Assembly (NCBI RefSeq): GCF_900185715.1
Contig: NZ_FYAS01000022.1
Span: 1 to 64,000, forward strand
DNA length: 64,000 bases
Source of the DNA: Allobosea sp. CS1GBMeth4
GTDB taxonomy: Bacteria; Pseudomonadota; Alphaproteobacteria; Rhizobiales; Beijerinckiaceae
Reading direction: 5' to 3'
A program made the translations under genes and the position numbers. Shown piece by piece: positions 39,534-58,456 of this stretch. Under the pieces are notes generated by a model that saw nothing but the letters and a program-made list of their open reading frames with translations, did no database searches and had not been told where the DNA came from. The stretch's first letter is position 1, and every line of letters begins with the position of its first letter.

Positions 39534-39547
39534 TCAAATCGATTTAA
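39534..39547. promoter_or_regulatory. LacI-type operator TCAAATC|GATTTAA
   Basis: A 14-base palindrome with a central CG and six of seven matching arm positions, typical of LacI-family sites. Its GATTTAA half recurs at 41601-41614 and 58443-58456, and its TCAAATCG half recurs at 56282-56289. It lies 54 bases before the dehydratase start. Confidence 0.6.
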
Positions 39548-39600
39548 GACCGACGCCGAAGCGGCTCGAAGGCCGCCTGGCCGCGAGAGGGAATGACGGG

Positions 39601-41463
39601 ATGGCCAAGACGCCCAAGAGTGATGTTCCGCGCCAGGAGCGGCCGGTTGCGGTGACGAAGTCCAAGGCCGTGCGGCGGATCAAGCCGGAGCAGCTCCGCT
39701 CCAAGGCCTGGTTCGACAACCCGGCCAATGCCGACATGACCGCGCTCTATATCGAGCGCACCATGAATTTCGGCCTGTCGCGCGAGGAGCTGCAATCCGG
39801 ACGCCCGATCATCGGCATCGCCCAGACCGGCTCCGACATCGCCCCCTGCAACCGCCATCACCTCGAGCTCGCCAGCAGGGTGCGCGACGGCATCCGCGAG
39901 ATGGGCGGCATTCCCTTCGAGTTCCCGATCCACCCGATCCAGGAAACCTGCAAGCGGCCCACGGCCGCGCTCGACCGCAACCTGCAATATCTCAGCCTCG
40001 TCGAGATCCTCTACGGCTACCCGCTCGACGGCGTCGTGCTGACCACCGGCTGCGACAAGACCACGCCGGCACAGATCATGGCAGCCGCGACCGTCGACAT
40101 CCCGGCGATCGCGCTGCCGGGCGGCCCGATGCTGAACGGCTCCTTCCGCGGCGAGCGCACCGGCTCGGGCACGATCGTCTGGAAGGCGCGCCAGATGATG
40201 GCGGCCGGCGAGATCGACTATCGCGGTTTCGTCGATCTGGTCGCGTCGTCCGCGCCGTCCGCGGGTCATTGCAACACCATGGGCACGGCCTCGACCATGA
40301 ACGCGCTCGCCGAGGCGATGGGCATGACCCTGCCCGGCGCCGCCGCAATTCCCGCGCCCTATCGCGACCGCTACGAGATGGCCTATCTCACCGGCCGGCG
40401 CATCGTCGAGATGGTCTGGGAGAACCTGATCCCCTCGAAGATCCTGACGCGCGAGGCCTTCGAGAACACCATCGTCATCAACTCCGCCATCGGCGGCTCG
40501 ACCAACGCGCCGGTCCACGTCAACGCCATCGCCAAGCATATCGGCGTCAAGCTCGACAACGAGGACTGGACGAGGATCGGCTACGACACGCCGCTGCTGG
40601 TCAACATGCAGCCGGCCGGCGAGTATCTCGGCGAGGATTATTATCGCGCCGGCGGGCTGCCCGCCGTGATCGCCGAATTGATCGCCAAGGGCCGGATCAA
40701 GCCGGCGATCACCGCCAATGGCCGGACTCACATCGAGAACTGCACCGGCGCCTTCTCGGGCGACCGCGAGGTCATCAAGGCCTATGACGAGCCGATGAAG
40801 AAGGAGGCGGGGTTCCTCAATCTCTCCGGCAATCTGTTCGACTCGGCGATCATGAAGACCAGCGTGATCACGCCGGAATTCCGCAAGCGCTATCTCGAGA
40901 ATCCGAAGGACCCGATGGCCTTCGAGGGCAAGGCGATCGTCTTCGACGGCCCCGAGGACTACCACCACCGCATCGACGACCCGGCCCTCGCCATCGACGA
41001 GCACTCGATCCTGTTCATCCGCGGCGTCGGCCCGGTCGGCTATCCCGGCGCGGCCGAGGTGGTGAACATGCGTCCGCCGGATTACCTGATCAAGAAGGGT
41101 GTGACCGCCCTCGCCTGCGTCGGCGACGGCCGCCAGTCCGGCACTTCGGGCTCGCCCTCGATCCTCAACGCCTCGCCGGAAGCGGCGACCGGCGGCGGCC
41201 TCGCGCTGCTCAGGACCGGCGACAAGGTCCGCATCGACCTGAAGAAGCGCACCGCCAACATGCTGATCTCGGACGAGGAGCTCGAGCAGCGGCGCGCCGA
41301 GCTCAAGGCGGCCGGCGGCTACAAGTACCCGAAGAGCCAGACGCCCTGGCAGGAGATCCAGCGCAAGATCGTCGACGAGCTCTCCGAGGGCATGGTGCTG
41401 AAGCCGGCGGTCAAGTACCAGAAGATCCACAAGAAGTTCGGCGTTCCGCGCGACAATCACTGA
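39601..41463 (+). CDS. IlvD/Edd-family sugar-acid dehydratase
   Basis: A 620-residue [2Fe-2S] or [4Fe-4S] enzyme that dehydrates an aldonic acid to its 2-keto-3-deoxy form. Cluster cysteines are seen in [21 protein letters not shown] and [12 protein letters not shown], and the catalytic serine region in [13 protein letters not shown]. It resembles arabonate/xylonate-type dehydratases more than IlvD; substrate unknown. It has a longer N-terminus (about 35 extra basic residues). The ATG at 39601 follows GAGAGGGA. It heads the sugar-acid cluster, with a LacI-type operator and a large palindrome in front. Confidence 0.9.
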
Positions 41464-41600
41464 GACTGCACCGAACCGGGCCGGCGGCGGGACCCCTGCC
41501 GCCGGCCATTCCCGCGGCGCATCGCGCCTCGTCGGCGGATGCGCGCGAGCGGGGCTGACAAACCCGCGCCAGGGCGACAATATGGCGGCCCTGAACCGCT

Positions 41601-41614
41601 TTGAAACGATTTAA
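41601..41614. promoter_or_regulatory. LacI-type operator TTGAAAC|GATTTAA
   Basis: Its right half GATTTAA is identical to 39534-39547 and the centre is CG. A second, weaker site CTGAACC|GCTTTGA sits directly upstream at 41591-41604, giving a tandem pair that ends one base before the lyase ATG at 41616. Binding there would block the promoter or the ribosome site. Confidence 0.5.
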
Positions 41615-41615
41615 A

Positions 41616-42455
41616 ATGGCTTACAGCCCGCAGGTCGACGCGTTTCGCAAGCTCCATGAATCCGGCTGCTTCGTCATGCCGAACCCCTGGGATTTCGGCT
41701 CGGCGCGCTGGCTGCGCGGCCAGGGCTTCCAGGCGCTGGCCTCGACCAGCGCCGGCTTCGCCTTCACGCAGGGCCGCGCCGACCAGGATGTGCCGCGCGA
41801 CATGATGCTGGCCCACCTCGCCGAGCTGGTGAAGGCGGTGCCGGACCTGCCGGTCAACGCCGATTTCGAGAACGGCTACGCCGATACGCCCGACGGCGTC
41901 GCCGCCAACGTCAAGCTCTGCATCGCGACCGGCGTCGCCGGCCTCTCGATCGAGGACGCGACCGGCCGTGACAACGATCCGCTCTATCCCTTCGAGCTCG
42001 CCGTCGAACGGGTGAAGGCGGCACGACGCGCCATCGACGAGACCGGCTCCGGCATCGTGCTGACGGCGCGGGCTGAAGCCTTCCTCACCGGCCACCCCGA
42101 GCCATTGGCGGAGGCGGTCAGGCGCATCGAGGCCTTCGTCGAGGCCGGCGCCGACGTGCTCTATGCGCCGGGCGTCAAGACGCCGGAGGAGATCGGCGCG
42201 ATCGTCACCGCGGCGCGCGGCCGGCCCGTCAACGTCGTCGCCTTCGCCGATTTCGGCCTCTCCGTCCGCGATTTCGCGGCGCTCGGCGTGCGCCGCATCT
42301 CGACCGGCTCGGCCTCGGCGCGCTCCGCCTGGGCCGGCTTCGTCGAATCGACCCGGATCATCAAGGAGGAGGGCAGCTTCCGCGGCTTCTCCGGCAATGC
42401 GCCGAGCCGGCAGATCGATGCCTTCTTCCGCGACGACCTGAAGGCGCGCTCGTGA
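41616..42455 (+). CDS. isocitrate lyase/PEP mutase family protein
   Basis: A 279-residue member of the ICL/PEPM superfamily (TIM barrel). LPVNADFENGYADTPDGVAA carries the metal-binding acidic residues, GVAGLSIEDATGRDND and VLTARAEAFLTGHPE follow. The usual lyase loop K(K/R)CGH of isocitrate and 2-methylisocitrate lyases is absent, so it is more like the oxaloacetate-decarboxylase or carboxyphosphonoenolpyruvate-type branch. It could cleave a keto-acid made by the neighbouring enzymes. The next gene starts inside its stop codon, beginning a tightly packed run of four or more genes. Confidence 0.87.
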   Translation: MAYSPQVDAFRKLHESGCFVMPNPWDFGSARWLRGQGFQALASTSAGFAFTQGRADQDVPRDMMLAHLAELVKAVPDLPVNADFENGYADTPDGVAANVKLCIATGVAGLSIEDATGRDNDPLYPFELAVERVKAARRAIDETGSGIVLTARAEAFLTGHPEPLAEAVRRIEAFVEAGADVLYAPGVKTPEEIGAIVTAARGRPVNVVAFADFGLSVRDFAALGVRRISTGSASARSAWAGFVESTRIIKEEGSFRGFSGNAPSRQIDAFFRDDLKARS

Positions 42456-42778
42456 GCGGGCCGGTGCTCGTCGCGCCGGAATGGCTCGGCAGGAGCGGGC
42501 TCTGGCTGATCGACGCCAAGGGCAGGCGCAAGCCGGTCGATGCCGACGATCTCGGCCTGTCCGACGATCTCGCCGACCGGCTCGAAAGCTGGATGGACAT
42601 GTTCGACGCGATCTATGACGAGGCGGACGAGGCCGCCTCCGATTTCGCCGACGAGGCCGAGCGGGCCGCCTGGGAGGCGGAAGGCGCCGCCCTCGTTCGG
42701 GCCATCGCCGCCGAGCTCGGCCCCGAATGGGACGTCACCCAGGATCTGAACGGCTGGCGTGGGAAGATATCGCGATGA
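42452..42778 (+). CDS. small acidic hypothetical protein
   Basis: A 108-residue protein of no family I recognise. It is strongly acidic (DADDLGLSDDLADRLESWMD; YDEADEAASDFADEAERAAW) and predicted helical, with a C-terminal GPEWDVTQDLNGWRGKISR. It starts at a GTG that overlaps the lyase stop and its own stop overlaps the double-GNAT start (ATGA), so it is co-translated with both. It could be a partner or inhibitor of the acetyltransferase, but that is only position-based. Confidence 0.65.
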   Translation: MSGPVLVAPEWLGRSGLWLIDAKGRRKPVDADDLGLSDDLADRLESWMDMFDAIYDEADEAASDFADEAERAAWEAEGAALVRAIAAELGPEWDVTQDLNGWRGKISR

Positions 42779-43914
42779 ACCCGATTCTGAACTGGACTCC
42801 GCCCCCCTTCCCGCCCGCGAAGGCGCTCGACGGCCGGTATTGCCGGCTCGAGCCGCTCGACCCCGCGCGCCATCTCGACGACATCTGGGCCGCCATGGCC
42901 GGCCACGACTCCCTCTGGGAGTGGATGCCGGCCCACCCGCCCAAAGACAAGGCCGCCTATGGCGACTTGCTGGCGGGCATGGCGGCCAAGGCCGGCATCG
43001 TGCCGTTCGCCGTGATCGACAAGGAAGACGGCAAGGCCAAGGGCCATCTCTGGCTGATGGAGATCAGGCCCGAGCACGGCGTCTTCGAGGTCGGCTACAT
43101 CACCTATTCGCCCGCCCTGCAGCGGACGCGGGTCGCGACCGAGGCCATCCATCTCTGCGGCGCCTACGGCTTCTCGCTCGGCTACCGCCGCTACGAGTGG
43201 AAGTGCAACAACCTCAACGAGCCTTCCAAGCGCGCGGCGCTGCGTTTCGGCTTCCGCTATGAGGGGCTGTTCCGCCAACACATGGTGGTCAAGGGCCGCA
43301 ATCGCGATACCGCCTGGTTCTCGATCGTCGACGGCGAATGGCCCCAGATCGCGCAGGGCTTCCGGCGCTGGCTCGCGCCGGAGAATTTCGATGCGCACGG
43401 CCGCCAGCGCGCGGCGCTCGGCGCCTTCAACCAGGCGAGCGCGATCGTCGGCGGGACGCGACTTCGCCGCGCCACCCTCGCCGATCTGCCCGCGATCACC
43501 GCGCTCAAGCAGGCGGCCTATCTGCCGAACGAGGCGATCATCGGCGTGCCGTCCCTGCCGCGCATCGCCGATTATCGCGACATCATCGCCAGCCACGAGA
43601 TCTGGCTGGTCGACGGTGCCGACGGCCTCGACGCCGCGCTCGTGCTGCAGATCGATCCGGACAAGTTCACGCTTTGGAGCATCGCCGTCGCGCCGGGCAC
43701 GGCCGGGCGCGGCCTCGGCGCCGAGCTGATGCGCTTTTGCGAGGAACGCGCCGCCACGCTCGGCTATGTCGCCGTGCAGCTCTACACCAACGCCAAGCTG
43801 ACCCGGCGCATCGGCTGGTACGAGCGGCTCGGCTACCGGTTCAGCCACCATGAGGAGCTCGCCGACCGGCGGCTGACCCATCTCGCCAAGAAACTCGACA
43901 AACCCGCAGCATAG
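42775..43914 (+). CDS. double-GNAT acetyltransferase fusion
   Basis: A 379-residue protein with two acetyltransferase domains in one frame. The N-terminal half (residues about 15-200) is a RimJ/RimL-like GNAT: LDGRYCRLEPLDPARHLDDI, VGYITYSPALQRTRVATEA, NNLNEPSKRAALRFGFRYEG. The C-terminal half (about 220-372) is a second GNAT: TRLRRATLADLPAITALKQA, LWSIAVAPGTAGRGLGAELM (acetyl-CoA loop GTAGRGLG) and LYTNAKLTRRIGWYERLGY. Both look intact. Substrates are unknown. It is translationally coupled to the acidic protein and followed 13 bases later by the SDR gene. Confidence 0.88.
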   Translation: MNPILNWTPPPFPPAKALDGRYCRLEPLDPARHLDDIWAAMAGHDSLWEWMPAHPPKDKAAYGDLLAGMAAKAGIVPFAVIDKEDGKAKGHLWLMEIRPEHGVFEVGYITYSPALQRTRVATEAIHLCGAYGFSLGYRRYEWKCNNLNEPSKRAALRFGFRYEGLFRQHMVVKGRNRDTAWFSIVDGEWPQIAQGFRRWLAPENFDAHGRQRAALGAFNQASAIVGGTRLRRATLADLPAITALKQAAYLPNEAIIGVPSLPRIADYRDIIASHEIWLVDGADGLDAALVLQIDPDKFTLWSIAVAPGTAGRGLGAELMRFCEERAATLGYVAVQLYTNAKLTRRIGWYERLGYRFSHHEELADRRLTHLAKKLDKPAA

Positions 43915-43927
43915 GAACGGAAACGAC

Positions 43928-44674
43928 ATGGCAGGACGTTTGAAGGGCAAGGTCGCGGTGGTCACCGCGGCCGGCCAGGGCATCGGCCGCGCGATCGCCG
44001 AGGCCTTCGTCGCCGAGGGCGCCACCGTCTGGGCGACCGACAAGGACGTCGCCCTGCTCGACGGCATCCCGAAGGCGAAGAAGCGCAAGCTCGACGTGCT
44101 CTCGACCAAGGCGGTCGAGGCCTTCGCCGAAAAGGTCGGCACCATCGACATCCTGGTCAACGCCGCCGGCTACGTCCATCACGGCACCGTGCTGGAGTGC
44201 GACGACAAGGCCTGGGAGTTCTCCTTCGACCTCAACGTCAAGTCGATGCACCGCACGATCAAGGCCTTCATCCCCGGCATGCTCGCCGCCGGCAAGGGCT
44301 CGATCGTCAACATCGCCTCCGGCGCCGGCTCGGTGCGCGGCATCCCGAACCGCTATGTCTACGGTGCCACCAAGGCCGCGGTGATCGGCCTGACCAAGGC
44401 GGTCGCCGCCGACTTCATCAAGAAGGGCATCCGCGCCAACGCGATCTGCCCGGGCACCATCCAGTCGCCCTCGCTCGATCAGCGCATCGTCGATCTCGCC
44501 AGGGCGACCAAGACCAGCGAGGCGGCCGCCCGCCAGGCCTTCATCGACCGCCAGCCCATGGGCCGGCTCGGCACCGCCGAGGAGATCGCCTGGCTCGCGG
44601 TCTATCTCGCTTCGGACGAGGCGAGCTACACCACCGGCCAGATCCATCTCGCCGACGGCGGCTTCGCGCTCTGA
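43928..44674 (+). CDS. SDR-family NAD(P)-dependent dehydrogenase
   Basis: A 248-residue classical short-chain dehydrogenase: cofactor motif TAAGQGIG near residue 14, NAAG, catalytic serine in NIASGAGS and YxxxK in YVYGATKAA, and the PG motif AICPGTIQSPSLDQRI. The RKLDVL strand and the PSL(D/E)xRI segment resemble the BDH2 / 2-keto-3-deoxy-L-fuconate dehydrogenase branch, so it may oxidise the 2-keto-3-deoxy product of the dehydratase upstream. It lies 13 bases after the GNAT gene with AGGAACGGA-like ribosome sites before the ATG. Confidence 0.9.
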   Translation: MAGRLKGKVAVVTAAGQGIGRAIAEAFVAEGATVWATDKDVALLDGIPKAKKRKLDVLSTKAVEAFAEKVGTIDILVNAAGYVHHGTVLECDDKAWEFSFDLNVKSMHRTIKAFIPGMLAAGKGSIVNIASGAGSVRGIPNRYVYGATKAAVIGLTKAVAADFIKKGIRANAICPGTIQSPSLDQRIVDLARATKTSEAAARQAFIDRQPMGRLGTAEEIAWLAVYLASDEASYTTGQIHLADGGFAL

Positions 44675-44693
44675 CGGGCGCGGGAGCAGCGCC

Positions 44694-45686
44694 ATGCACG
44701 TCCTGATCACCGGCGCCGCCGGGATGATCGGCCAGCGGCTCGCCGCGCGCATCGCCCGCGAGGGTGCCTGCGCCGGCAAGCCGCTCACACGGCTGAGCTT
44801 GACCGACGTCGTGGCGCCGCCCCGACCGGCCGGCTTCGACGGGCCGGTCGAGACGCGCACCGAGGATTCGAGCCCGGCGGCGGTCGCGGCCGAACTCGCG
44901 GCCTTGCGGCCCGACATCATCTTCCATCTCGCCGCGATCATCTCCGGCGAGGCCGAGCGCGATCTCGACAAGGGCTATCGCATCAATCTCGATGGCATGC
45001 GCAATCTGCTGGAGGCGATCCGGCAGGAGAGCGCGCGCAAAGGCTCCTATGTCCCGAGGCTCGTCTTCTCCTCCTCGAGCGGCATCTTCGGCGCGCCCTT
45101 CCCGCCTTCGATCTCCGACGAGTTCCATGTCACGCCGCTGACCAGCTACGGCACGCAGAAGGCCATCGGCGAGCTGCTGCTGGCCGACTATTCGCGCCGC
45201 GGCTTCGTCGACGGCGTCGGCGTCCGTTTCCCCTCGATCGTGATCCGGCCGGGCAAGCCGAACGCCTCGGCGGGAGGCTTCTTCTCCGGCATCATCCGCG
45301 AGCCGCTGCAGGGCCGTGAGGCGCTGCTGCCGGTCGAGGACGACGTCGTCTTCACCCATGCCTCGCCGCGCGCGGCCGTCGGCTTCCTGCTGCATGGCGC
45401 CGCGCTGACGCGCGAGCAGCTCGGCCTCCGCATCAACCTGACCATGCCGGGCGTCTGCGTCAGCGTCGGCGAGCAGATCGAGGCACTGCGCCGGATCGCC
45501 GGCGACAGGGCGGTGAAGCTGATCAGGCGCGCGCCCGACAAGGCCGCCTCCGACATCGTCAAGGGCTGGCCGACACGCTTCGACGCCCGCCGCGCGCTCG
45601 CGCTCGGCTTCCAGGCCGAACAGGATTTCGACGAGATCATCCGCATCCATATCGAGGACGATCTCGGCGGCCGCCTTCCCAACTGA
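44694..45686 (+). CDS. DenD-like NAD-dependent epimerase/dehydrogenase, copy 1
   Basis: A 330-residue extended SDR. The Rossmann motif is LITGAAGMIGQRLA, the active-site YxxxK is in TPLTSYGTQKAIGELLLADY, and RFPSIVIRPGKPNASAGGFF follows. The sequence pattern fits the D-erythronate dehydrogenase (DenD) group, which oxidises C2 of four-carbon sugar acids. It is followed 27 bases later by a paralogue with the same motifs in the same order. Confidence 0.9.
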   Translation: MHVLITGAAGMIGQRLAARIAREGACAGKPLTRLSLTDVVAPPRPAGFDGPVETRTEDSSPAAVAAELAALRPDIIFHLAAIISGEAERDLDKGYRINLDGMRNLLEAIRQESARKGSYVPRLVFSSSSGIFGAPFPPSISDEFHVTPLTSYGTQKAIGELLLADYSRRGFVDGVGVRFPSIVIRPGKPNASAGGFFSGIIREPLQGREALLPVEDDVVFTHASPRAAVGFLLHGAALTREQLGLRINLTMPGVCVSVGEQIEALRRIAGDRAVKLIRRAPDKAASDIVKGWPTRFDARRALALGFQAEQDFDEIIRIHIEDDLGGRLPN

Positions 45687-45713
45687 GTTCGACAACCCGA
45701 TCGGAAAGAGACA

Positions 45714-46697: not shown

Positions 46698-46721
46698 TCG
46701 CGTAGGCGCAAGACAACTCCA

Positions 46722-46816
46722 CCGTCATGCTCGCCCTTGTGGCGAGCATCCGCGTCCTGGGCGCCGGCTTCGCCAAAGGAGGACGGGGATGGTCGGGACA
46801 GGCCCGACCATGACGG
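46722..46816. repeat. GTCATGCTCGCCC-type intergenic repeat, copy 1
   Basis: Starts CCGTCATGCTCGCCCTTGTG and ends GGACAGGCCCGACCATGACGG, with inverted CCGTCATG/CATGACGG ends. It shares GTCATGCTCGCCCTTGTGGC, GAGCATCCGCGTC and CAAAGGA blocks with 61112-61203. It lies between the converging DenD-2 and Inh-type genes. Confidence 0.82.
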
Positions 46817-46833
46817 AATGAGGCGAGCCCTTC

Positions 46834-47637: not shown

Positions 47638-47642
47638 CCTGA

Positions 47643-48617
47643 TCAGGCCTTCCTCCATGGCGTCTCGGCAACGGGCGTCAGCGGGCCCTTGCCATCGAAC
47701 CATGAAACCAGATTGTCGACCAGAAGCTGGCCCATCTGCTCGCGCGTATGCACCGAGGCCGAGCCGACATGCGGCAGAAGCACGACATGGTCCATCGCGA
47801 TCAGCTCGGCCGGCACGCGCGGCTCGTCCTCGAACACGTCGAGGCCGGCCGAGAGGATGGTCTTGCTCTTCAGCGCCTCGATCAGCGCCGCTTCGTCGAT
47901 CACCGTGCCGCGCCCGACATTGACGACGATGCCGTTCGGGCCGAGCGCCTTCAGCACCTCGGCGTTGATGATGTGGTAGGTCGACTTCCCGCCCGGCGCG
48001 ACCGAGACCAGCGTATCGACATCCTGGGCCATCTCGACCAGCGAGGAATAGTAGCGATAGCCGACATCGGCCTGGCGCGAGCGGCCGTGATAGACGATCG
48101 GCACGTCGAAGGCCTCGAGCCGGCGCGCCACCGCCTTGCCGATCCGGCCGAGCCCGACGATGCCGATCTTGCGCTTGCGCAGCGAGGTGGTGAGCGGGTA
48201 GGCGCCCGAGAGCCACTTGCCGGCGCGCAGATAGCGGTCGACCTGCGGCAATTGCCGGACCGTCGCCAGCAGCAGGCCGACGGCGAGGTCGGCGACCTCG
48301 TCGGTCAGCACATCCGGCGTGTTGGTGACGATGATGCCGCGCTTGCCGGCGGCCACGGCGTCGACATTGTCGTAGCCGACGCCGAAATTCGAGACGATCT
48401 CCAGCATGGGCAGCGCGTCGAACAGCGCATCGTCGATGCGCACATGCGCGCCGCCGCCGGCGACGCCGCGCACGCGATCCCTCACCGCGGCCAGCGCCGC
48501 CGGGCGGTCCTGCTCCTTCCAGAGCTCGTGCACGGTGAAGCGCGCCTTCAGCTGGTCGGCGGCATAGGCCATCAGCGGCCCGGTCATGATGATCTCGATC
48601 TTGCTCTGCGCGGTCAT
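47643..48617 (-). CDS. D-2-hydroxyacid dehydrogenase (glyoxylate/hydroxypyruvate reductase type)
   Basis: A 324-residue NAD(P)-dependent enzyme. GIVGLGRIGKAVARRLEAFD is the cofactor motif, and the catalytic Arg–Glu–His triad lies in VSVAPGGKSTYH/NVGRGTVID, EDEP and LLPHVGSASVHTRE. It resembles GhrB-type reductases that turn hydroxypyruvate into D-glycerate, which the glycerate kinase at 27710-29035 could use. The ATG at 48617 follows AGCAGGG. A LacI-type site and a GT-ATG-AC site lie upstream. Confidence 0.92.
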   Translation of the reverse strand: MTAQSKIEIIMTGPLMAYAADQLKARFTVHELWKEQDRPAALAAVRDRVRGVAGGGAHVRIDDALFDALPMLEIVSNFGVGYDNVDAVAAGKRGIIVTNTPDVLTDEVADLAVGLLLATVRQLPQVDRYLRAGKWLSGAYPLTTSLRKRKIGIVGLGRIGKAVARRLEAFDVPIVYHGRSRQADVGYRYYSSLVEMAQDVDTLVSVAPGGKSTYHIINAEVLKALGPNGIVVNVGRGTVIDEAALIEALKSKTILSAGLDVFEDEPRVPAELIAMDHVVLLPHVGSASVHTREQMGQLLVDNLVSWFDGKGPLTPVAETPWRKA

Positions 48618-48661
48618 GGCCCTGCTTTCGTCGAACGAATCTGTGGCTTGATTTCAAATTC

Positions 48662-48675
48662 TTAAAACGATTAGA
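48662..48675. promoter_or_regulatory. LacI-type operator-like site TTAAAAC|GATTAGA
   Basis: A weaker member of the family (right half GATTAGA matches GATTTAA at five of seven positions; CG centre). It lies 45 bases before the D-2-hydroxyacid dehydrogenase start on the minus strand. Confidence 0.35.
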
Positions 48676-48781
48676 TCAACATAGCCGCCGGCTCGCCGCA
48701 GGGGAATTGCCCTGGCGCGCAGACAGGGGCTGCTCGCAGAGCCGGCGACGCGTCCCGGTCCGGCCGTCGATTCACCTCGAT

Positions 48782-48796
48782 ATAGTATGACTTAAT
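48782..48796. promoter_or_regulatory. GntR/FadR-type motif, downstream copy
   Basis: ATAGTATGACTTAAT has the GT-N3-AC core of FadR-branch GntR operators. It touches the first base of the gntR stop codon and lies 165 bases before the D-2-hydroxyacid dehydrogenase. It matches the copy at 49639-49653 at 13 of 15 positions. Confidence 0.5.
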
Positions 48797-49590
48797 CACG
48801 CGCCCTCGGCCGGTTCCAGCTGCGCTCGCCCGGCGAGCAGGCGCAGGGTGCTGTTCAGGCTGTCGATCACCAGGCCGCTCATCCGCGCCGCCGCGAGCTC
48901 GCCGTCGCACTGCACGATCGCGTCGCGCACACGTTCGTGATCGATCAGCGACGCCGTGAAGAAGAAGCGGTCGTCCGGGGCCTTCAGGAACAGCGACCAC
49001 TGGATGGTGGCGCAGACCGCCGGCGCGAGGCATTGCAGCGGCGGGTTGCGGGTGGCGGCGAAGATCGCCTCGTGGAAGGCGAGGTCGGCGCTGACCGTCG
49101 GCTCCGCATAGGGCGGGTTCTCGCACATGCCGCGAAACGCCGTCTCGATCCGCTGGAGATCGGCGGCGCTGCGCCGCTGCGCCGCGAGCCGGGCGGCGCT
49201 CGGCTCGACGAAAAGCCTGAGTTCGAACAGGTCCCGGATGAACTTCTCGTTCGGATCGGCCTCGAAATGCCAGGCCAGCACGTCGGGATCGAGCAGGTTC
49301 CAGGCCTCGCGCGGCGCGACCCGGGTGCCGCTCTTGGGCCGCGCCTCGACCAGCCCCTTACCGCTCAGGAACTTGACGGCCTCGCGATAGGCCGTGCGCG
49401 AGACCGAGATCTCGTCCTTCAGGTCGTCCTCGTTCGGCAGCAGCCCGCCGGCCGGCGCGGCGCCGGTGATGATCGCGACCGCGAGCCGATGCGCGACCTG
49501 GCCGAACAGCCGGTCGGGGTTGAGCCTCGTCGGGCGCGCAGGCACGGGACGCTGCATCGAAGCGGGCTTTTCCTCCGTATCGGGTGGCAT
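48796..49590 (-). CDS. GntR family (FadR/FCD branch) transcriptional regulator
   Basis: A 264-residue regulator: winged helix (residues about 20-85; LLPNEDDLKDEISVSRTAYREAVKFL) and an FCD ligand domain whose metal-ligand residues are in SADLAFHEAIFAATRN and LIDHERVRDAI. FCD regulators usually sense hydroxy- or sugar acids, which fits the cluster. Starts at 49590 and 49557 are both possible; neither has an ideal ribosome site. A longer open frame reaches 49704 without similarity. It is divergent from the ABC transporter operon. Confidence 0.9.
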   Translation of the reverse strand: MPPDTEEKPASMQRPVPARPTRLNPDRLFGQVAHRLAVAIITGAAPAGGLLPNEDDLKDEISVSRTAYREAVKFLSGKGLVEARPKSGTRVAPREAWNLLDPDVLAWHFEADPNEKFIRDLFELRLFVEPSAARLAAQRRSAADLQRIETAFRGMCENPPYAEPTVSADLAFHEAIFAATRNPPLQCLAPAVCATIQWSLFLKAPDDRFFFTASLIDHERVRDAIVQCDGELAAARMSGLVIDSLNSTLRLLAGRAQLEPAEGA

Positions 49591-49621
49591 CGGACATCGC
49601 CCGCTGCCGGCTCCCGGGCGC

Positions 49622-49653
49622 TTGACACGCCTGTTCCTATCGTATGACTTTAT
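49622..49653 (+). promoter_or_regulatory. ABC-operon promoter with GntR-type motif
   Basis: TTGACA at 49622-49627 is a perfect -35; with 17-base spacing the -10 position falls on TGACTT, which is poor and lies inside the 15-base motif ATCGTATGACTTTAT (49639-49653). That motif matches 48782-48796. A regulator bound here would cover the -10 region. It lies about 150 bases before the ABC ATPase start and 50 bases upstream of the gntR start. Confidence 0.5.
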
Positions 49654-49800
49654 CCGCGAACGAGGTCGACGCAACAGGCCCCTCGCCTGAGTGCGCGACC
49701 TCATGTCGATCGGTCGTCTAGAAACCGATGATCTGCAGCGCCGCCGGCGGGGATCGTGTCAGGCACCCCGGGGCCAACGAAGAGCGGGAGAGAAACCGAG

Positions 49801-50865
<1,065 letters not shown>

Positions 50866-50971
50866 GTTCCATCGGCCGCCGCACGGGGAACGCTCCGGCG
50901 GCGGCGACGTCCCAGCAAAACGCGACGAGGCTCCCATGCAGGGCCTCGCGGCAACCCGGAGGAGACAGACG

Positions 50972-52279: not shown

Positions 52280-52340
52280 TCCGTCGAGACCGCGCCGTCG
52301 GGACGCCCGGCGGCGCGGCTCCATCACGGGATAACGCGCC

Positions 52341-53294
52341 ATGACAATTGCGGCGGAGGCCCGGCCGGTCCCCCAGCTCTCGCAGAGCTGGCTGGTCAGG
52401 CTGTTCGACTACAAGCCCTTTCTGATCTTCATCTGCCTCCTGCCGGCGATGGGCCTGCTCCTGGTCTTCCTGAGCTATCCGCTCGGCCTCGGGATCTGGC
52501 TCGCCTTCACCGATACGCGCATCGGCCGCGGCGGCTATTTCATCGGCTTCGAGAATTTCGAGTCGCTCTGGCACGATCCGGTCTTCATCACCTCGGTCTG
52601 GAACACGCTGCTCTACACGGGCGTCGCGACCGTCGGGAAATTCGCGCTCGGGCTCTGGCTCGCGCTGCTGCTCAACAACCACTTGCCGTTCAAGTCGCTG
52701 CTGCGGGCCCTGATCCTGGTGCCGTGGATCGTGCCGACAGTGCTCTCCGCGATCGCCTTCTGGTGGATCTACGATCCGCAGTTCTCGATCATCTCCTACA
52801 TCCTCGTCGACGTGCTCGGCTGGCGCGACACCTATATCGACTTCCTCGGCTCGCCCTGGCCGGCGCGCTGGTCGCTGATCGCCGCCAATATCTGGCGCGG
52901 CATTCCCTTCGTCGCGATTTCGCTGCTCGCCGGCCTGCAGACCATCTCGCCTGCGCTCTACGAGGCGGCGATGCTCGACGGCGCCAATGCCTGGCAGCGC
53001 TTCCGCCATGTCACCCTGCCCATGCTGATGCCGATCCTGGCGGTGGTGCTGACCTTCTCGGTGCTGTTCACCTTCACCGATTTCCAGCTCGTCTACGCCA
53101 TCACCCGCGGCGGCCCGATCAACTCGACCCATCTGATGGCGACGCTCGCCTTCCAGCGCGGCATCCCGGGCGGCCAGCTCGGCGAGGGCGCGGCGATCGC
53201 GGTGGCGATGATCCCCTTCCTCGTGCTGGCCACGCTGTTCAGCTACTTCGCGCTCGCCCGCCGCAAATGGCAGCAGGGAGAAGACAATGACTGA
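52341..53294 (+). CDS. sugar ABC transporter permease, MalF/UgpA type
   Basis: A 317-residue inner-membrane protein with six predicted helices. The EAA loop that docks on the ATPase reads YEAAMLDGANAWQRFRHVTL near residue 210. Its N-terminus is cytoplasmic (MTIAAEARPVPQLSQSWLV). The partner permease starts eight bases before its stop, so the two are translationally coupled. Confidence 0.94.
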   Translation: MTIAAEARPVPQLSQSWLVRLFDYKPFLIFICLLPAMGLLLVFLSYPLGLGIWLAFTDTRIGRGGYFIGFENFESLWHDPVFITSVWNTLLYTGVATVGKFALGLWLALLLNNHLPFKSLLRALILVPWIVPTVLSAIAFWWIYDPQFSIISYILVDVLGWRDTYIDFLGSPWPARWSLIAANIWRGIPFVAISLLAGLQTISPALYEAAMLDGANAWQRFRHVTLPMLMPILAVVLTFSVLFTFTDFQLVYAITRGGPINSTHLMATLAFQRGIPGGQLGEGAAIAVAMIPFLVLATLFSYFALARRKWQQGEDND

Positions 53295-54195
53295 TCAGGC
53301 TCCCGCCGCGGCCGCGCGCCCGCATCTCGTCGACAAGGAGCGGACCGGCGTCATCGACTGGTCCTCCGGACCGCGCCGCTTCATCACGCTCTATCTGCCG
53401 CTCGCGATCTTCGTGATCGTGCTGCTGTTCCCGTTCTACTGGATGGCGATCACGGCGATCAAACCGAACGCCGAGCTCTACGACTACAAGACCTACAACC
53501 CGTTCTGGGTGAAGTCGCCGACGCTGGAGAACATCAACCGGCTGCTGTTCCAGACCGATTACCCGCAATGGCTCTGGACGACGATGATGGTGGCGACGGT
53601 CGCGACCGCGCTCTCGCTCTTCTCCAGCGTGCTCGCCGCCTATGCGATCCAGCGCCTGAAGTTCAAGGGTTCGAGCTATGTCGGCCTGGCGATCTACCTC
53701 GCCTATCTCGTCCCGCCCTCGATCCTGTTCATTCCCCTGGCGACGCTGATCTTCCAGTTCGGCCTGTTCGACTCGCCGATGGCGCTGATCCTGACTTATC
53801 CGACCTTCCTGATCCCGTTCTGCACCTGGCTGCTGATCGGCTACTTCAAGTCGATCCCCTACGAGCTCGAGGAATGCGCCATGATCGACGGCGCGACCCG
53901 CTTGCAGACGCTCTGGCAGATCACCTTGCCGCTGGCCCTGCCCGGGCTGATCTCGGCCGGCATCTTCGCCTTCACCCTGTCCTGGAACGAGTTCATCTAT
54001 GCGCTCGCCTTCATCCAGTCGGCCGAGAAGAAGACGGTGCCGGTCGCGGTGCTGACCCAGCTCGTCGAGGGCGACGTCTACCATTGGGGCTCTCTGATGG
54101 CCGGCGCGCTGCTCGGCTCGATCCCCGTCGCCCTGCTCTATTCCTTCTTCGTCGACTACTACGTCGCCTCGCTGACCGGCGCGGTGAAGGAGTGA
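53287..54195 (+). CDS. sugar ABC transporter permease, MalG/UgpE type
   Basis: A 302-residue inner-membrane protein, six predicted helices; the EAA loop is in YELEECAMIDGATRLQTLWQ near residue 195. It completes the importer with the ATPase, binding protein and first permease. The next gene, an LtnD-like dehydrogenase, starts 52 bases later on the same strand, which ties the transporter to catabolism of its substrate. Confidence 0.94.
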   Translation: MTDQAPAAAARPHLVDKERTGVIDWSSGPRRFITLYLPLAIFVIVLLFPFYWMAITAIKPNAELYDYKTYNPFWVKSPTLENINRLLFQTDYPQWLWTTMMVATVATALSLFSSVLAAYAIQRLKFKGSSYVGLAIYLAYLVPPSILFIPLATLIFQFGLFDSPMALILTYPTFLIPFCTWLLIGYFKSIPYELEECAMIDGATRLQTLWQITLPLALPGLISAGIFAFTLSWNEFIYALAFIQSAEKKTVPVAVLTQLVEGDVYHWGSLMAGALLGSIPVALLYSFFVDYYVASLTGAVKE

Positions 54196-54247
54196 TGCTC
54201 AGGATGGGCGGCCGCCCCGCCGCCCTCATAGCCGAGGCCAGAGATCA

Positions 54248-55138
54248 GTGACTTCCATCGCCTTCGTCGGGCTCGGCGCCATGGGTGCGCCGATGGCCGA
54301 AAACCTCGTCAAGCGACAGTTCCGCGTCACCGGCTTCGACATGCGCGAGAGCGCCCGGGCCGCGCTCGCCGCCGCCGGCGGGATCGCCGCCGACAGCGCG
54401 GCCGCGGCGGCCCGGGGCGCCGATGCGCTCGTTCTGATGGTGGTCAACGCCGCCCAGGCCCGGTCCGTGCTGTTCGACGCCGGCGCGCTGGCGGCGCTGG
54501 CGCCCGGCGCCACGGTCATCCTGATGGCGACCTGCCCGCCGGGCGAGGTCGAGGCCATGGCCGATGCGGTGACGCAGACCGGCCGGCATTTCGTCGACGC
54601 GCCGGTTTCGGGCGGCGTGAAGGGCGCCGAAGGCGGCACGCTCACCATCATGGTGGGCGCTCCGGCGGAGAGCTTCGCCAGGGCGAGGCCGGTGCTCGAC
54701 GCCATGGGCGACAAGGTCTTCCATGTCGGCGAGAAACCCGGCCAGGGCGCGACGGTGAAGACCGTCAACCAGCTGCTCTGCGGCGTCCACATCGCGGTGG
54801 CGGCGGAGGCGCTCTCGCTGGCGCAGAAGGCGGGCATCGACGGCGCGCTGCTCTTCGAGATCCTCGGGGGCTCGGCCGCCTCGTCCTGGATGCTGAAGGA
54901 CCGCGGCCCGCGCATGCTCGAGGACGAGCCGCCCGTCGCCAGCGCCGTCGACATCTTCGTCAAGGATCTCGGCATCGTCCTCGATGCCGGCCGGGCGGCC
55001 AAGGCGGCGCTGCCGCTCGCCGCGGCCGCGCACCAGATGTTCCTCGCCGCCTCGGGCCTCGGCCATGGCGGGCGCGACGACTCGCATGTCGTGCGCGCCT
55101 ACCGGGCGCTGAACCGCAAGCCCGACGGTGATGCCTGA
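54248..55138 (+). CDS. 3-hydroxyisobutyrate-dehydrogenase-family oxidoreductase, LtnD-like
   Basis: A 296-residue beta-hydroxyacid dehydrogenase: cofactor motif FVGLGAMGAPMAENLVK, substrate motif DAPVSGGVKGAEGGTLTIM, and the catalytic lysine in GQGATVKTVNQLL. The pattern resembles L-threonate dehydrogenase (LtnD), which oxidises C2 or C3 of four-carbon acids. Together with the DenD-like genes this points to C4 sugar acids, but the kinase (OtnK), isomerase (OtnI) and aldolase (OtnC) of the known pathways are not in the window. It begins at a GTG and converges with the lacI-type gene seven bases later. Confidence 0.88.
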   Translation: MTSIAFVGLGAMGAPMAENLVKRQFRVTGFDMRESARAALAAAGGIAADSAAAAARGADALVLMVVNAAQARSVLFDAGALAALAPGATVILMATCPPGEVEAMADAVTQTGRHFVDAPVSGGVKGAEGGTLTIMVGAPAESFARARPVLDAMGDKVFHVGEKPGQGATVKTVNQLLCGVHIAVAAEALSLAQKAGIDGALLFEILGGSAASSWMLKDRGPRMLEDEPPVASAVDIFVKDLGIVLDAGRAAKAALPLAAAAHQMFLAASGLGHGGRDDSHVVRAYRALNRKPDGDA

Positions 55139-55145
55139 GCCTGCC

Positions 55146-56231
55146 TCAGCGCCGCGTCTTCGGCGCTGCCGTGGTCTGGCGCACGACGAGCTCGGGCGTC
55201 AGGACGACGCGCTGCGGCGGCGCCGACGGGTCGGCGATCCGGCGGATCAGCATCTCCGCGGTCTTGCGTCCCATCTCGTCCTGGAAGTTCTTGACCGTGG
55301 TCAGCGCCGGATACCATTGCGAGGCTTCCTGAACATCGTCGCAGCCGATGATCGAGAAGTCCGCGCCGGCCTCCAATCCGCGATGACGCAGGCCGAGCAT
55401 CGCGCCGAAGGCGGTGAGGTCGTTGAAGCAGACGGCGGCGCTCGGCGGATTCTCCGCGTCGAGCACCTTCTGGACACCCTTGAGGCCATTCTCGCGCGTG
55501 CCATAGGCCGAGTAGACGATGGTGGGGTCGAGCGGCAGGCCGTGTTTCGCCAGCGTCTCGCAATAGCCGCTATAGCGGTTGCGGCCGGTCGAGATCAGCG
55601 GGCTCTCGCCGAGGAAGGCGATGCGGCGATGGCCGAGGCCGATCAGGTGCTCGACGGCGAGCACGGTGCCGTGCCGGTCGTCGGAGCCGACGAAATCGAG
55701 CCCGATGCCGGGGATCTCGCGCGAGAGCTGCACCAGCGGCACATGCGCCGCCATCAGGTGTTGCAGGGTCTCGGCCGTGCTGCCGCCGGCCGGGCAGATG
55801 ATCATCCCGTCGGGACGGTATTCCTTCAGCGTGTTGAGGACCCGGTCCTGCCGCTCGAGATTCTCGGCATAGGTCCCGAGCAGGATCGAGCGGCCATGCG
55901 CCGCCGCCGTTTCCTCGATCGCCGCGAGCAGCTCGGCGAAATAGGGATTGGTGATGTCGTGGAAGCCGACGCCGAGGATATTCGTGCGGTCGGTCCGGAG
56001 CGAGGCGGCGCTGCGATTGTAGCTGTAGCCCATCTCGCGCGCGATCTGCTGGACGCGCAGGCGCGTGCCGTCGGCGACGAGCGGACTCTCGCGCAAGGCG
56101 AGCGACACGGTCGCCGTCGAGACCTCGAGCCGGTCAGCGATGATCTGCAAGGTAACGCGCCCGCGCCCACCCGGTTTCACACCCGCCCTGCCCGGCCCCG
56201 AGGGGTCGCGCGGGTGTCCGTCATTCGCCAT
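55146..56231 (-). CDS. LacI family transcriptional regulator
   Basis: A 361-residue regulator. The helix-turn-helix is VTLQIIADRLEVSTATVSLA (residues about 27-47) with the hinge helix near YNRSAASLRTDRTN; the periplasmic-binding-like ligand domain follows (ILGVGFHDITNPYFAELLAA). A longer basic N-terminal tail precedes the HTH. The ATG at 56231 has AGGAG at nine bases. It is divergent from an oxidoreductase gene. Five LacI-type operator-like sites spread over 39.5-58.5 kb are the natural targets. Confidence 0.93.
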   Translation of the reverse strand: MANDGHPRDPSGPGRAGVKPGGRGRVTLQIIADRLEVSTATVSLALRESPLVADGTRLRVQQIAREMGYSYNRSAASLRTDRTNILGVGFHDITNPYFAELLAAIEETAAAHGRSILLGTYAENLERQDRVLNTLKEYRPDGMIICPAGGSTAETLQHLMAAHVPLVQLSREIPGIGLDFVGSDDRHGTVLAVEHLIGLGHRRIAFLGESPLISTGRNRYSGYCETLAKHGLPLDPTIVYSAYGTRENGLKGVQKVLDAENPPSAAVCFNDLTAFGAMLGLRHRGLEAGADFSIIGCDDVQEASQWYPALTTVKNFQDEMGRKTAEMLIRRIADPSAPPQRVVLTPELVVRQTTAAPKTRR

Positions 56232-56269
56232 CAATCGCTTCTCCTGAAGCCTCGAAGCCGCAGCACTCA

Positions 56270-56295
56270 ACCAATTCTTGGTCAAATCGTTCCGC
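56270..56295. promoter_or_regulatory. divergent lacI/oxidoreductase operator region
   Basis: Holds a perfect ACCAA-TTC-TTGGT palindrome (56270-56282) directly followed by TCAAATC|GTTCCGC (56282-56295), whose left half TCAAATCG equals that of 39534-39547. It lies in the 104-base gap between the divergent starts, a natural autoregulation site. Confidence 0.45.
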
Positions 56296-56335
56296 ATTTC
56301 CTTGTTCCATCTCATAGAATTCGGAGAAACTGAAG

Positions 56336-57238
56336 ATGAGCACGACTAAAGAATCGATCGGCTTCATCGGCGTCGGGTACATGGGCCAGGGCATGGCGAG
56401 CTGCATTCTCGCCAAGGGCTACCCTCTCGTGGTCATGGGCCATCGCAACCGCCGGCCCGTCGAGGAGTTGAAGGCCGCCGGCGCCGAGGAAGCGGCGACA
56501 CCGCGCGAACTCGCCGGGAAGGCGGACATCATCTTCCTTTGCGTCACCGGCTCGCCGCAGGTCGAACAGGTCGTCGATGGTCCCGACGGCATCGCCGCCG
56601 GCGCGAGGCCCGGCACCATCATCGTCGACTGCTCGACCTCCGATCCCGTCTCGACCGTGGCCTTGGCGGCTCGTCTCTCTGCCATGGGCCTGCACCTCTG
56701 CGACGCCCCGCTCGGGGGAACGCCCGCTCAGGCGAAGCTCGGGCAGCTCTCGACGATGATTGGAGCCGACAGGGCGGTTTTCGAGCGCATTCGCCCCGTC
56801 TGCGAAGCCTGGGCCCAGAAGATCGTCCATCTCGGCCCGGTCGGGGACGGTCACAAGATGAAGCTGCTCAACAACTTCCTCTCGCTCGGCTACGGCGCGA
56901 TCTACGCCGAGGCCCTCACGCTCGCCCAGAAGGTCGGGATCGCCCCGCAGACCTTCGACAGCGTCATCTCGGGCGGCCGGATGGACTGCGGCTTCTACCA
57001 GACCTTCATGAAATACGTGCTGGAGCGCGACCGCGACGCCCACAAGTTCACGCTCTCCAACGCCTTGAAGGACGTGCGCTATCTGGAGAGCCTCGCCAAT
57101 GCCGCCGGGGTTCCCAATCCGGTCGGCGGAGCGGTCAAGAACCTCTATGCCGCCGCCGTCGCCAGCGGCAGGGGCGAGGACTACGTGCCGATGCTCTCGG
57201 ACTTCGTCGCGGCGCAAAGCGGCGTGTCGCTCGGCTGA
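56336..57238 (+). CDS. NAD(P)-dependent beta-hydroxyacid dehydrogenase
   Basis: A 300-residue 3-hydroxyisobutyrate-dehydrogenase-family enzyme: GFIGVGYMGQGMASCILAKG, substrate motif CDAPLGGTPAQAKLGQLSTM (a variant of DAPVSGG), catalytic lysine in GDGHKMKLLNNFLSLG. It is only distantly like the LtnD-like protein at 54248-55138. Likely substrate is a short hydroxy acid or semialdehyde such as tartronate semialdehyde or a C4 acid. It is divergent from, and probably controlled by, the LacI-type regulator. Confidence 0.9.
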   Translation: MSTTKESIGFIGVGYMGQGMASCILAKGYPLVVMGHRNRRPVEELKAAGAEEAATPRELAGKADIIFLCVTGSPQVEQVVDGPDGIAAGARPGTIIVDCSTSDPVSTVALAARLSAMGLHLCDAPLGGTPAQAKLGQLSTMIGADRAVFERIRPVCEAWAQKIVHLGPVGDGHKMKLLNNFLSLGYGAIYAEALTLAQKVGIAPQTFDSVISGGRMDCGFYQTFMKYVLERDRDAHKFTLSNALKDVRYLESLANAAGVPNPVGGAVKNLYAAAVASGRGEDYVPMLSDFVAAQSGVSLG

Positions 57239-57328
57239 GCGCGCGGCCTGTGCCGAAGCGGGACCGGCCCGGACCAGGGTTGTGCCGAACGGGGCCGCCT
57301 GTCGCCATTTCCGGTGCAATACCGTCAT

Positions 57329-57359
57329 GAAGGCCTCCATCCATGGTGGAGGCCTTCAA
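57329..57359. terminator. perfect 12-bp hairpin between converging genes
   Basis: TGAAGGCCTCCA (57329-57340) pairs with TGGAGGCCTTCA (57348-57359) around a seven-base loop, between the oxidoreductase stop and the EamA gene's end. No T-run follows on either strand, so it is a likely but non-canonical bidirectional stop signal. Confidence 0.5.
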
Positions 57360-57372
57360 GGAGCGTGCCGGA

Positions 57373-58290
57373 TCAGTCCAGCCGGGCCGAGCCCTCGGGC
57401 ACGGCCCGGATGCGCTCGCGATAGAGCAGATAGAGGCCGGAGGCGATGACGATCCCCGCGCCGATGAACGTGAAACGGTCGGGGATCTGGCCGAAGACGA
57501 ACCAGCCGAGCAGGATCATCCAGACGATCTGGGAGTAAACGAAGGGCGCCAGGATCGTCGCCGGCGCGCGCTGATGCGCCAGGATCAGCAGCCAGTGGCC
57601 GAGCGCGCCGAAGAAGCCCGTCGCGCACATCAGCAGCCAGCTCTGCCAGCCCGCGGGCCAGGACCAGAACAGCGGCAGGAGCGGCAGCATCAGGACGACT
57701 CCGCCGATCCCAGAATAGAACATCGTCGTCTGCGGCGAGTCGCTCGACGCCAGCATGCGCGTCGACAGGCTGTACAGGGCGTAGCAGAAGCAGCCGCAGA
57801 CGCAGAGCAGCGCAGCCGGATGCAGCCCCCCGAGCCCCGGCCGCGTCACCACCAGCACGCCGAGGAAGCCGACGCCGATCGCCAGCAACCGGCGCGGCCC
57901 GGCCCATTCGCCCAGCAACGGCCCCGCCAGCAGCGCGACCAGCAGCGGCGCCGCGAACATGATCGAGACCGTCTCTGCCAGTTGCAGGTACTGCAGCGCC
58001 ACGAAGTTGAGCCCGGTCGAGCCGAGCAGCAGCAGCGAGCGGACAGCTTGCAGCCAGGGGCGCCGGGTCCGGGTGATTCCGGGATGGCTCCAGGGATTGA
58101 GCAGCAGCGAGACCAGCGCGACGCTGATCACATAGCGCGCCAGGACGACCTGCATCGGATGCATCGTCCCGCCGAGCCATTTCGCGCTGGCGTCGAGCAG
58201 GGAGAAGCAGATGATCGCCCCGCTCATCAGGGCGATGGCGGTCAGGCGTGTCCGGCGCGTATCGGGAAGCGGAGCGGGAGCGGCCGACAA
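57373..58290 (-). CDS. EamA/DMT family transporter
   Basis: A 305-residue inner-membrane protein with two EamA repeats of about five helices each, roughly residues 17-140 and 160-290 (LTAIALMSGAIICFSLLDAS; ALLCVCGCFCYALYSLSTRM). Members export or import small metabolites such as amino acids and nucleosides. A LacI-type operator-like site at 58443-58456 lies 153 bases before its start, so it may belong to the sugar-acid regulon and export a by-product. The ATG at 58290 gives a short cytoplasmic lead. Confidence 0.92.
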   Translation of the reverse strand: MSAAPAPLPDTRRTRLTAIALMSGAIICFSLLDASAKWLGGTMHPMQVVLARYVISVALVSLLLNPWSHPGITRTRRPWLQAVRSLLLLGSTGLNFVALQYLQLAETVSIMFAAPLLVALLAGPLLGEWAGPRRLLAIGVGFLGVLVVTRPGLGGLHPAALLCVCGCFCYALYSLSTRMLASSDSPQTTMFYSGIGGVVLMLPLLPLFWSWPAGWQSWLLMCATGFFGALGHWLLILAHQRAPATILAPFVYSQIVWMILLGWFVFGQIPDRFTFIGAGIVIASGLYLLYRERIRAVPEGSARLD

Positions 58291-58372
58291 GGCTCTTGTC
58301 TCGTCATGCCGGCCCGCCTTCCGATCGGCCGAACGGCCGGTCGATCAGACTCCGTGCCAGCCCGGGTTGGTG

Positions 58373-58421
58373 GAGCGTGCCCTGATCGCGAAAGCGGTCT
58401 CCACTTTCGCGGAACATGCTC
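58373..58421. repeat. GAGCATGTTC-type palindromic repeat, copy in front of EamA gene
   Basis: GAGCGTGCCC, TGAT, CGCGAAAGCGG, TCT, CCACTTTCGCG, GAACATGCTC: the same modular layout and length as 34988-35036, with compensating and non-compensating changes. It lies in the 219-base EamA–MarR gap. Confidence 0.8.
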
Positions 58422-58442
58422 TGGAGGAATGACGAGACATCA

Positions 58443-58456
58443 GTGAACCGATTTAA
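58443..58456. promoter_or_regulatory. LacI-type operator-like site GTGAACC|GATTTAA
   Basis: The right half GATTTAA equals that of 39534-39547 and 41601-41614, with a CG centre. It lies 153 bases upstream of the EamA start on the minus strand. Confidence 0.5.

What the first reader, a model, noticed from the sequence alone, without database searches (positions are those of the whole stretch)
39534..58456. Scattered LacI-type operators define a putative sugar-acid regulon
Seen directly: 14-base sites with a central CG and a GATTTAA half at 39534 (before the dehydratase), 41601 (before the lyase operon) and 58443 (before the EamA gene), a weaker site at 48662 (before the D-2-hydroxyacid dehydrogenase), and the matching TCAAATCG half at 56282 (between lacI and the oxidoreductase). 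Known: LacI proteins bind CG-centred palindromes and often their own promoter. Inferred: the regulator at 55146-56231 controls all five units, including the EamA transporter.
Basis: partly seen in the sequence, partly recalled or inferred. Interest (0 to 1): 0.75.

Follow-up and report, generated by a model that had tools for sequence, protein, structure and literature searches.

The report
Bosea PckR-type carbon regulon operators
The scattered 14-base sites are real, strongly conserved binding sites, most likely for one LacI-family regulator (the Bosea counterpart of rhizobial PckR) that ties sugar-acid breakdown genes and a transporter to control of central carbon metabolism; this is a solid regulon with new members, but not a new kind of system.

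Summary
Four of the five reported sites (39534, 41601, 48662, 58443) are real. With a matrix trained only on other Bosea species they rank 1, 2, 3 and 5 of all 14-mers in the window. They are conserved genus-wide before orthologues of the dehydratase, lyase, 2-hydroxyacid dehydrogenase (hpr) and EamA gene, even where these genes are unlinked to lacI. The fifth (56282, before lacI) is not supported: chance gives about 5.6 such matches per 64 kb, and it is absent in most Bosea.

The regulon is larger than reported. Rank 4 (29491) precedes pyruvate kinase, and conserved sites precede pckA, idnD/idnO and an SMP-30-like gene elsewhere in the genome. The motif fits the published PckR consensus TNNAANCGNTT. 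The window's LacI is the closest Bosea homologue of Sinorhizobium meliloti PckR (41%; same recognition helix; tree support 94/85; MarR-pckR-hpr gene order). The only Bosea genome of 67 without it has lost or damaged the hpr, dehydratase and EamA sites, keeping the boxes of a second, FCD-GntR regulator.

Best reading: a Bosea PckR regulon, probably PEP-responsive, with new sugar-acid and transporter members. Binding and effector are untested.

The parts
39534..39547 (.). operator TCAAATCGATTTAA before the sugar-acid dehydratase
   Evidence: rank 1 of the window with a relatives-only matrix; conserved as TCAAATCG[AT]TTNAA in most Bosea
39601..41463 (+). IlvD/Edd-family dehydratase, sugar-acid type
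   Evidence: NCBIfam PRK13017; best solved relative is named galactonate dehydratase, 7m3k, E 1.8e-302
41555..41583 (+). putative promoter of the lyase: CTGACA, 17 nt, CAATAT
   Evidence: CTGACA-n17-CANTAT kept in the leaders of the other species; the simple promoter scan found nothing
41601..41614 (.). operator TTGAAACGATTTAA, between the putative -10 box and the lyase ATG
   Evidence: 97% mean column conservation against 51% in the 20 nt before it, 30 species; 39 exact copies in 67 Bosea genomes, none for the reversed control
41616..42455 (+). isocitrate lyase/PEP mutase-superfamily lyase
   Evidence: Pfam PEP_mutase; nearest solved relative 4lsb
48662..48675 (.). operator TTAAAACGATTAGA before hpr
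   Evidence: rank 3; position conserved in 30/30 Bosea and in Chelatococcus, Alsobacter and two other Hyphomicrobiales MAGs
47643..48617 (-). D-2-hydroxyacid dehydrogenase (hpr-like)
   Evidence: Pfam 2-Hacid_dh; 52% identical to the gene next to S. meliloti pckR
58443..58456 (.). operator GTGAACCGATTTAA before EamA
   Evidence: rank 5; conserved in 24/30 Bosea, and before EamA in Chelatococcus and Alsobacter
57373..58290 (-). EamA-family transporter
   Evidence: Pfam EamA
   Evidence: rank 4; kept in 5 of 6 relatives checked, lost in G017
29551..30990 (+). pyruvate kinase pykA
   Evidence: NCBIfam PRK06247 and TIGR01064 above cut-off
55146..56231 (-). LacI-family regulator, Bosea counterpart of PckR
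   Evidence: Pfam LacI; best Bosea match to S. meliloti PckR; tree; gene order
56282..56295 (.). half-site TCAAATCGTTCCGC before lacI; not supported as an operator
   Evidence: rank 9, chance expectation 5.55 per window; not conserved in most Bosea
48796..49704 (-). FCD-domain GntR regulator, probable second regulator of the cluster
   Evidence: Pfam FCD and GntR
48782..48794 (+). FCD-GntR-type box ATAGTATGACTTA upstream of hpr
   Evidence: same kind of box conserved before hpr and the dehydratase in other Bosea
49639..49651 (+). second such box ATCGTATGACTTT, near the 5' end of the FCD-GntR gene
   Evidence: two matches against 0.10 expected
58510..59061 (-). MarR-family gene, part of the conserved MarR-pckR-hpr order
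   Evidence: 32% identical to the MarR gene just upstream of S. meliloti pckR, E 2e-15

Best explanation
The sites are operators of a single dispersed regulon run by the LacI-family protein at 55146-56231, which is the Bosea orthologue of rhizobial PckR. The protein would bind CG-centred palindromes of the form TTNAANCGNTTNAA as a dimer. At the lyase the operator lies between the putative -10 box and the start codon, so binding should repress; at pckA it lies about 190 nt before the start codon, upstream of the conserved putative promoter, which fits activation. By analogy with S. meliloti PckR the signal is phosphoenolpyruvate, so sugar-acid breakdown (dehydratase, lyase, hpr, idnD/idnO), EamA, pykA and pckA would be set together by the PEP/pyruvate state of the cell. 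Shown here: the sites, their conservation, the kinship of the regulator, and the co-loss of sites and regulator in one species. Inferred: binding, sign of regulation and effector.
For: Sites conserved before orthologues of four window genes and of pckA and idnD. The lyase site is 97% conserved while its flanks are about 50%, and its distance to the ATG varies by 1-3 nt between species, as expected of a DNA-level site. The exact 14-mer occurs 39 times in 67 Bosea genomes, never as reversed control; of 29 loci read, 24 precede the lyase and 5 precede one SMP-30-like gene, whose copy in this genome carries TTAAATCGGTTTAA instead, so the AAACG and CCG forms replace each other at one gene. G016, the only one of 67 Bosea genomes without this LacI, has no site left at hpr or the dehydratase and CG changed to CA at EamA, while FCD-type boxes and the FCD gene remain. 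The recognition helix STATVSLAL is shared with S. meliloti PckR and with no other of the six LacI proteins here. PckR's best Bosea match is this protein, 249 bits against 131 for the next; the tree joins them at 94/85 and leaves out the other S. meliloti homologue. MarR-pckR-hpr order in Sinorhizobium and Shinella matches MarR-EamA-LacI-hpr in Chelatococcus and Bosea. S. meliloti pckA and eda carry the same kind of site, eda 27 nt before its ATG. The motif fits TNNAANCGNTT reported for PckR (PMC8877191), and pckA, pykA, edd and hpr are listed PckR targets (PMC4052901).
Against: No binding or expression data. In G016 the pckA site is nearly intact (TTCAAGCGATTTAA), so co-loss is 3 of 4 and rests on one lineage. 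Eight small-genome Bosea carry a 52% LacI, and the three of them checked have no pckA site. The dehydratase site is lost in G009, G011, G028 and G032 although they keep the regulator. As a query, the window LacI scores slightly higher against another S. meliloti LacI (255 bits) than against PckR (251). Sites before zwf, edd and eda of Bosea were not found or not tested.
Confidence: 0.84

Rival explanations
1. The sites are real operators but are bound by another LacI paralogue, or shared between several LacI proteins, so there is no single regulon.
For: Six LacI genes in the genome; the published PckR and ThuR motifs overlap in rhizobia (PMC8877191); the pckA site persists in G016 without this LacI.
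Against: Only this LacI has Leu after STATVS in the recognition helix; the other five have R, D or N there. Orthologues with the same helix carry this motif before their own gene in Chelatococcus and Phreatobacter. Three sites decay in the species that lacks it.
Confidence: 0.1
2. The lyase site is a translation-start or RNA element instead of a DNA operator, and the rest are chance look-alikes.
For: At the lyase the site touches the ATG, and no clear Shine-Dalgarno sequence is seen in the leader.
Against: Its spacing to the ATG varies between species; the same 14-mer sits 35-40 nt before the ATG of an unrelated gene, in the other orientation; it is palindromic and conserved at six or more genes.
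Confidence: 0.02
3. The FCD-GntR regulator at 48796-49704 owns the cluster, and the CG sites have no role in it.
For: FCD-type boxes lie before hpr and, in most species, before the dehydratase.
Against: The FCD boxes are a different sequence (ATAGTATGACTAT type), and they persist in G016 where the CG sites are gone. Two regulators acting together is more likely.
Confidence: 0.04

Closest known systems
PckR (SMc02975 of Sinorhizobium meliloti; Rhizobiales PckR regulog of Ravcheev et al. 2014, PMC4052901)
   Same: LacI family; 41% identity with the same recognition helix; matching CG-centred motif; sites at pckA, pykA and hpr; MarR-pckR-hpr order; gene largely unlinked to its targets
   Different: Bosea adds the lyase, a sugar-acid dehydratase, EamA, idnD/idnO and an SMP-30-like gene; one pckA site where S. 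meliloti has two; no good site before its own gene; zwf-pgl-edd, eda and fba not shown as targets
Cra/FruR of enterobacteria
   Same: LacI-family regulator at the glycolysis/gluconeogenesis switch that includes pckA and pykF-type genes (established knowledge; compared in PMC4052901)
   Different: PMC4052901 calls PckR a partial functional replacement of Cra/FruR; no sequence comparison of this protein with Cra was made beyond a weak profile match
Local LacI regulators of gluconate/idonate use (GntR, IdnR)
   Same: sites before idnD/idnO and sugar-acid genes
   Different: profile scores far below the GntR and IdnR cut-offs; the regulon also covers central metabolism

Membership tests
PckR | LacI-family protein with LacI DNA-binding and sugar-binding-like domains | tested here: met
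   Pfam LacI, Peripla_BP_1 and Peripla_BP_3
PckR | orthology to S. meliloti PckR | tested here: met
   best Bosea match of PckR, 249 against 131 bits; tree 94/85; synteny. In the reverse direction another S. meliloti LacI scores 255 against 251 bits, so the call leans on tree, helix and synteny. The S. meliloti gene was identified as PckR by its place about 17 genes from eda and next to hpr, not by a name in the record
PckR | motif TNNAANCGNTT | tested here: met
   matrix consensus TTAAATCGATTTAA; published motif quoted in PMC8877191
PckR | operator at pckA | tested here: met
   30/30 Bosea pckA upstream regions
PckR | operator at hpr and pykA | tested here: met
   hpr 30/30; pykA in the window and 5 of 6 relatives
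PckR | operators at zwf-pgl-edd, eda and fba | not tested
The eda of a Bosea plasmid has no site
PckR | effector phosphoenolpyruvate | not testable with these tools
   reported for S. meliloti (PMC8877191, citing diCenzo and colleagues); needs a binding assay
PckR | autoregulation | tested here: not met
   56282 is at chance level and not conserved in most Bosea. Not a strict defining feature: fewer than half of global LacI regulators are autoregulated (PMC4052901)

The most novel reading that the evidence does not exclude
In Boseaceae the PckR lineage has been rewired from a mainly glycolytic/gluconeogenic switch into a combined sugar-acid and PEP-node regulator, with an EamA carrier as a dedicated transporter of a pathway acid and a genus-specific lyase held by an operator next to its start codon, double-gated by an FCD-GntR regulator.
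Probability: 0.4. Interest if true: 0.5.

Novelty: new member of a known kind. Interest (0 to 1): 0.42.

Why it matters
It turns a set of unlinked genes of unclear role (a PEP-mutase-type lyase, an EamA transporter, an SMP-30-like protein) into predicted members of one carbon regulon, extends PckR to Boseaceae and neighbouring families, and gives sites and a natural loss (G016) with which the regulon can be tested directly.

Tried and rejected
The site before lacI: rejected as conserved operator. The weak 41591 site overlapping 41601 was not followed. Repeated TCAGATCGATTCAA at C6:100392 and C48:104588 sits in a shared repeat context and was set aside. Sites before kup, inside lepA and inside other genes were treated as probable chance; sites before a FAH hydrolase, an SDR, a TAXI-TRAP and a tripartite tricarboxylate transporter and a galactarate-dehydratase-like gene are candidates only, because conservation was not tested. 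First deep tree with long branches was unreliable and was rebuilt. First-pass LacI alignment was too gappy to read and was replaced by unaligned leaders. The experimental S. meliloti PckR paper is not in the library. Literature check for the MalI operator as analogy gave nothing used.
Full report
Setting. The window is positions 1-64000 of contig 6 of a 5.07 Mb genome; its closest named relatives are Bosea lupini and other Bosea. The genome has six LacI genes.

Observation. Four of them are the only matches within three mismatches of TTAAATCGATTTAA in the window. In the whole genome there are 27 such places against 15 for the reversed control, so a loose match alone proves little. A matrix built only from other species ranks the sites 1 (39534), 2 (41601), 3 (48662) and 5 (58443); no shuffled window reached the score of 48662. 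Site 56282 ranks 9th, at a score reached 5.55 times per shuffled window.

Conservation. Upstream regions of orthologues were collected from the genus. Within 300 bp a strong site is found for the lyase in 28/30, the dehydratase in 23/29, hpr in 30/30, EamA in 24/30, idnD in 30/30 and pckA in 30/30; random 300-bp stretches give 2.1%, an overestimate because the loci sampled contain real sites. The matrix was trained on these same sets, so the counts describe conservation and are not an independent test. The independent points are the ranks in the window and the cross-genus sites. In Chelatococcus, Alsobacter and two other Hyphomicrobiales MAGs the best, second-best or third-best 14-mer of a 15-21 kb locus falls within 120 bp before hpr or EamA. 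At the lyase, site columns average 97% identity against 51% for the 20 nt before it, and the distance to the ATG varies by one to three bases. The exact lyase 14-mer occurs 39 times in 33 of 67 genomes, and the reversed control never. Of the 29 loci read, 24 precede the lyase; the other five precede orthologues of one SMP-30/gluconolactonase-like protein in reverse orientation. That gene has TTAAATCGGTTTAA in this genome, so the two site classes seen before the lyase and before EamA replace each other at one gene.

Which regulator. One Bosea of 67, G016, lacks an orthologue of the window's LacI. It also lacks a close homologue of the lyase and of idnD. Its dehydratase and hpr have no operator left, and its EamA site reads CTAAATCAGTTCAA, with the central CG broken; FCD-type boxes before the dehydratase and hpr remain, and the FCD gene is still upstream of hpr. 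Its pckA site, TTCAAGCGATTTAA, is nearly intact. This is one loss event, so it supports but does not prove the assignment. Among the six LacI proteins only this one has the STATVSLAL helix, which is shared by all orthologues inspected and by S. meliloti PckR.

Identity with PckR. A Sinorhizobium record filed as a plasmid but 3.72 Mb long carries pckA, chvGI and eda. About 17 genes from eda lies a LacI gene just upstream of a 2-hydroxyacid dehydrogenase and just downstream of a MarR gene. This spacing agrees with the locus numbers RL4145 (pckR) and RL4162 (eda2) in Rhizobium leguminosarum (PMC11406972), so I take it to be PckR. Its best Bosea match is the window's LacI (41%, 249 bits; next 131 bits). 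In the reverse direction another S. meliloti LacI scores 255 against 251 bits, but the tree places PckR with the window clade at 94/85 and that other protein outside. The MarR-pckR-hpr order recurs in Shinella and, with insertions, in Chelatococcus and Bosea. S. meliloti pckA and eda carry the same kind of palindrome. Published PckR work gives the motif TNNAANCGNTT and PEP as effector (PMC8877191), and targets that include pckA, pykA, edd and hpr (PMC4052901).

Mechanism. Shown: sites, positions, conservation and kinship. Inferred: at the lyase, a promoter CTGACA-n17-CANTAT is followed by the operator and then the ATG, so a bound repressor would block RNA polymerase. At pckA the site sits about 190 nt before the ATG, upstream of a conserved TTGAGC...CCTAAAG stretch, consistent with the activation of pckA reported in S. 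meliloti (PMC11406972). With PEP as signal, the regulon would balance sugar-acid and PEP/pyruvate flux. A second regulator, the FCD-GntR protein at 48796-49704, probably acts at hpr and the dehydratase through ATAGTATGACTAT-type boxes.

Function of the targets. The dehydratase is nearest to a solved galactonate dehydratase and a solved IlvD/Edd dehydratase. The cluster also holds two D-erythronate dehydrogenase-like genes, an L-threonate dehydrogenase-like gene below its cut-off and an ABC transporter, so a C4-C6 sugar acid is plausible, but the substrate is unknown.

Verdict. The regulator belongs with the known PckR; the Bosea membership and several targets appear undescribed in the papers that could be searched.

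Noticed in passing
window 48782-48794 and 49639-49651: FCD-GntR-type boxes beside the FCD regulator gene, and the same kind of box before the dehydratase in most Bosea: a probable second regulon over the same cluster.
   Followed up: partly
window 27635-29035: Glycerate 2-kinase-like gene just upstream of pykA; hpr, glycerate kinase and pyruvate kinase would form a path from hydroxypyruvate to pyruvate.
   Followed up: no
L270 (G000:C38:10000-20000), site at 5426: TTCAATCGTTTGAA before a galactarate-dehydratase-like gene, next to a 6-phosphogluconate dehydrogenase gene and a gluconokinase-like gene; candidate further regulon member, conservation not tested.
   Followed up: partly
L258, L259, L260, L261 (own genome): Operator-like sites close before the start of a 2,4-didehydro-3-deoxy-L-rhamnonate hydrolase-like gene, a TAXI-TRAP transporter, an SDR gene and a tripartite tricarboxylate transporter; conservation not tested.
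   Followed up: partly
L265 (G000:C39), 7744 and 7764: Two similar CG palindromes 20 bp apart, TTAAACCGATTTAG and CTGAATCGGTTTAA, between a Ku-like gene and an autotransporter-like gene; no explanation.
   Followed up: no
L366, L368 (CP090106.1): Record named 'plasmid pSymB' of S. meliloti Ak57 is 3.72 Mb and carries chromosomal genes such as pckA, chvGI and eda; probably a mislabelled chromosome.
   Followed up: partly
L370, L371 (G026, G078): Small-genome Bosea carry a 52% identical LacI with the same recognition helix directly next to hpr, as in S. meliloti, but matrix scans found no matching site before lacI or hpr there.
   Followed up: partly
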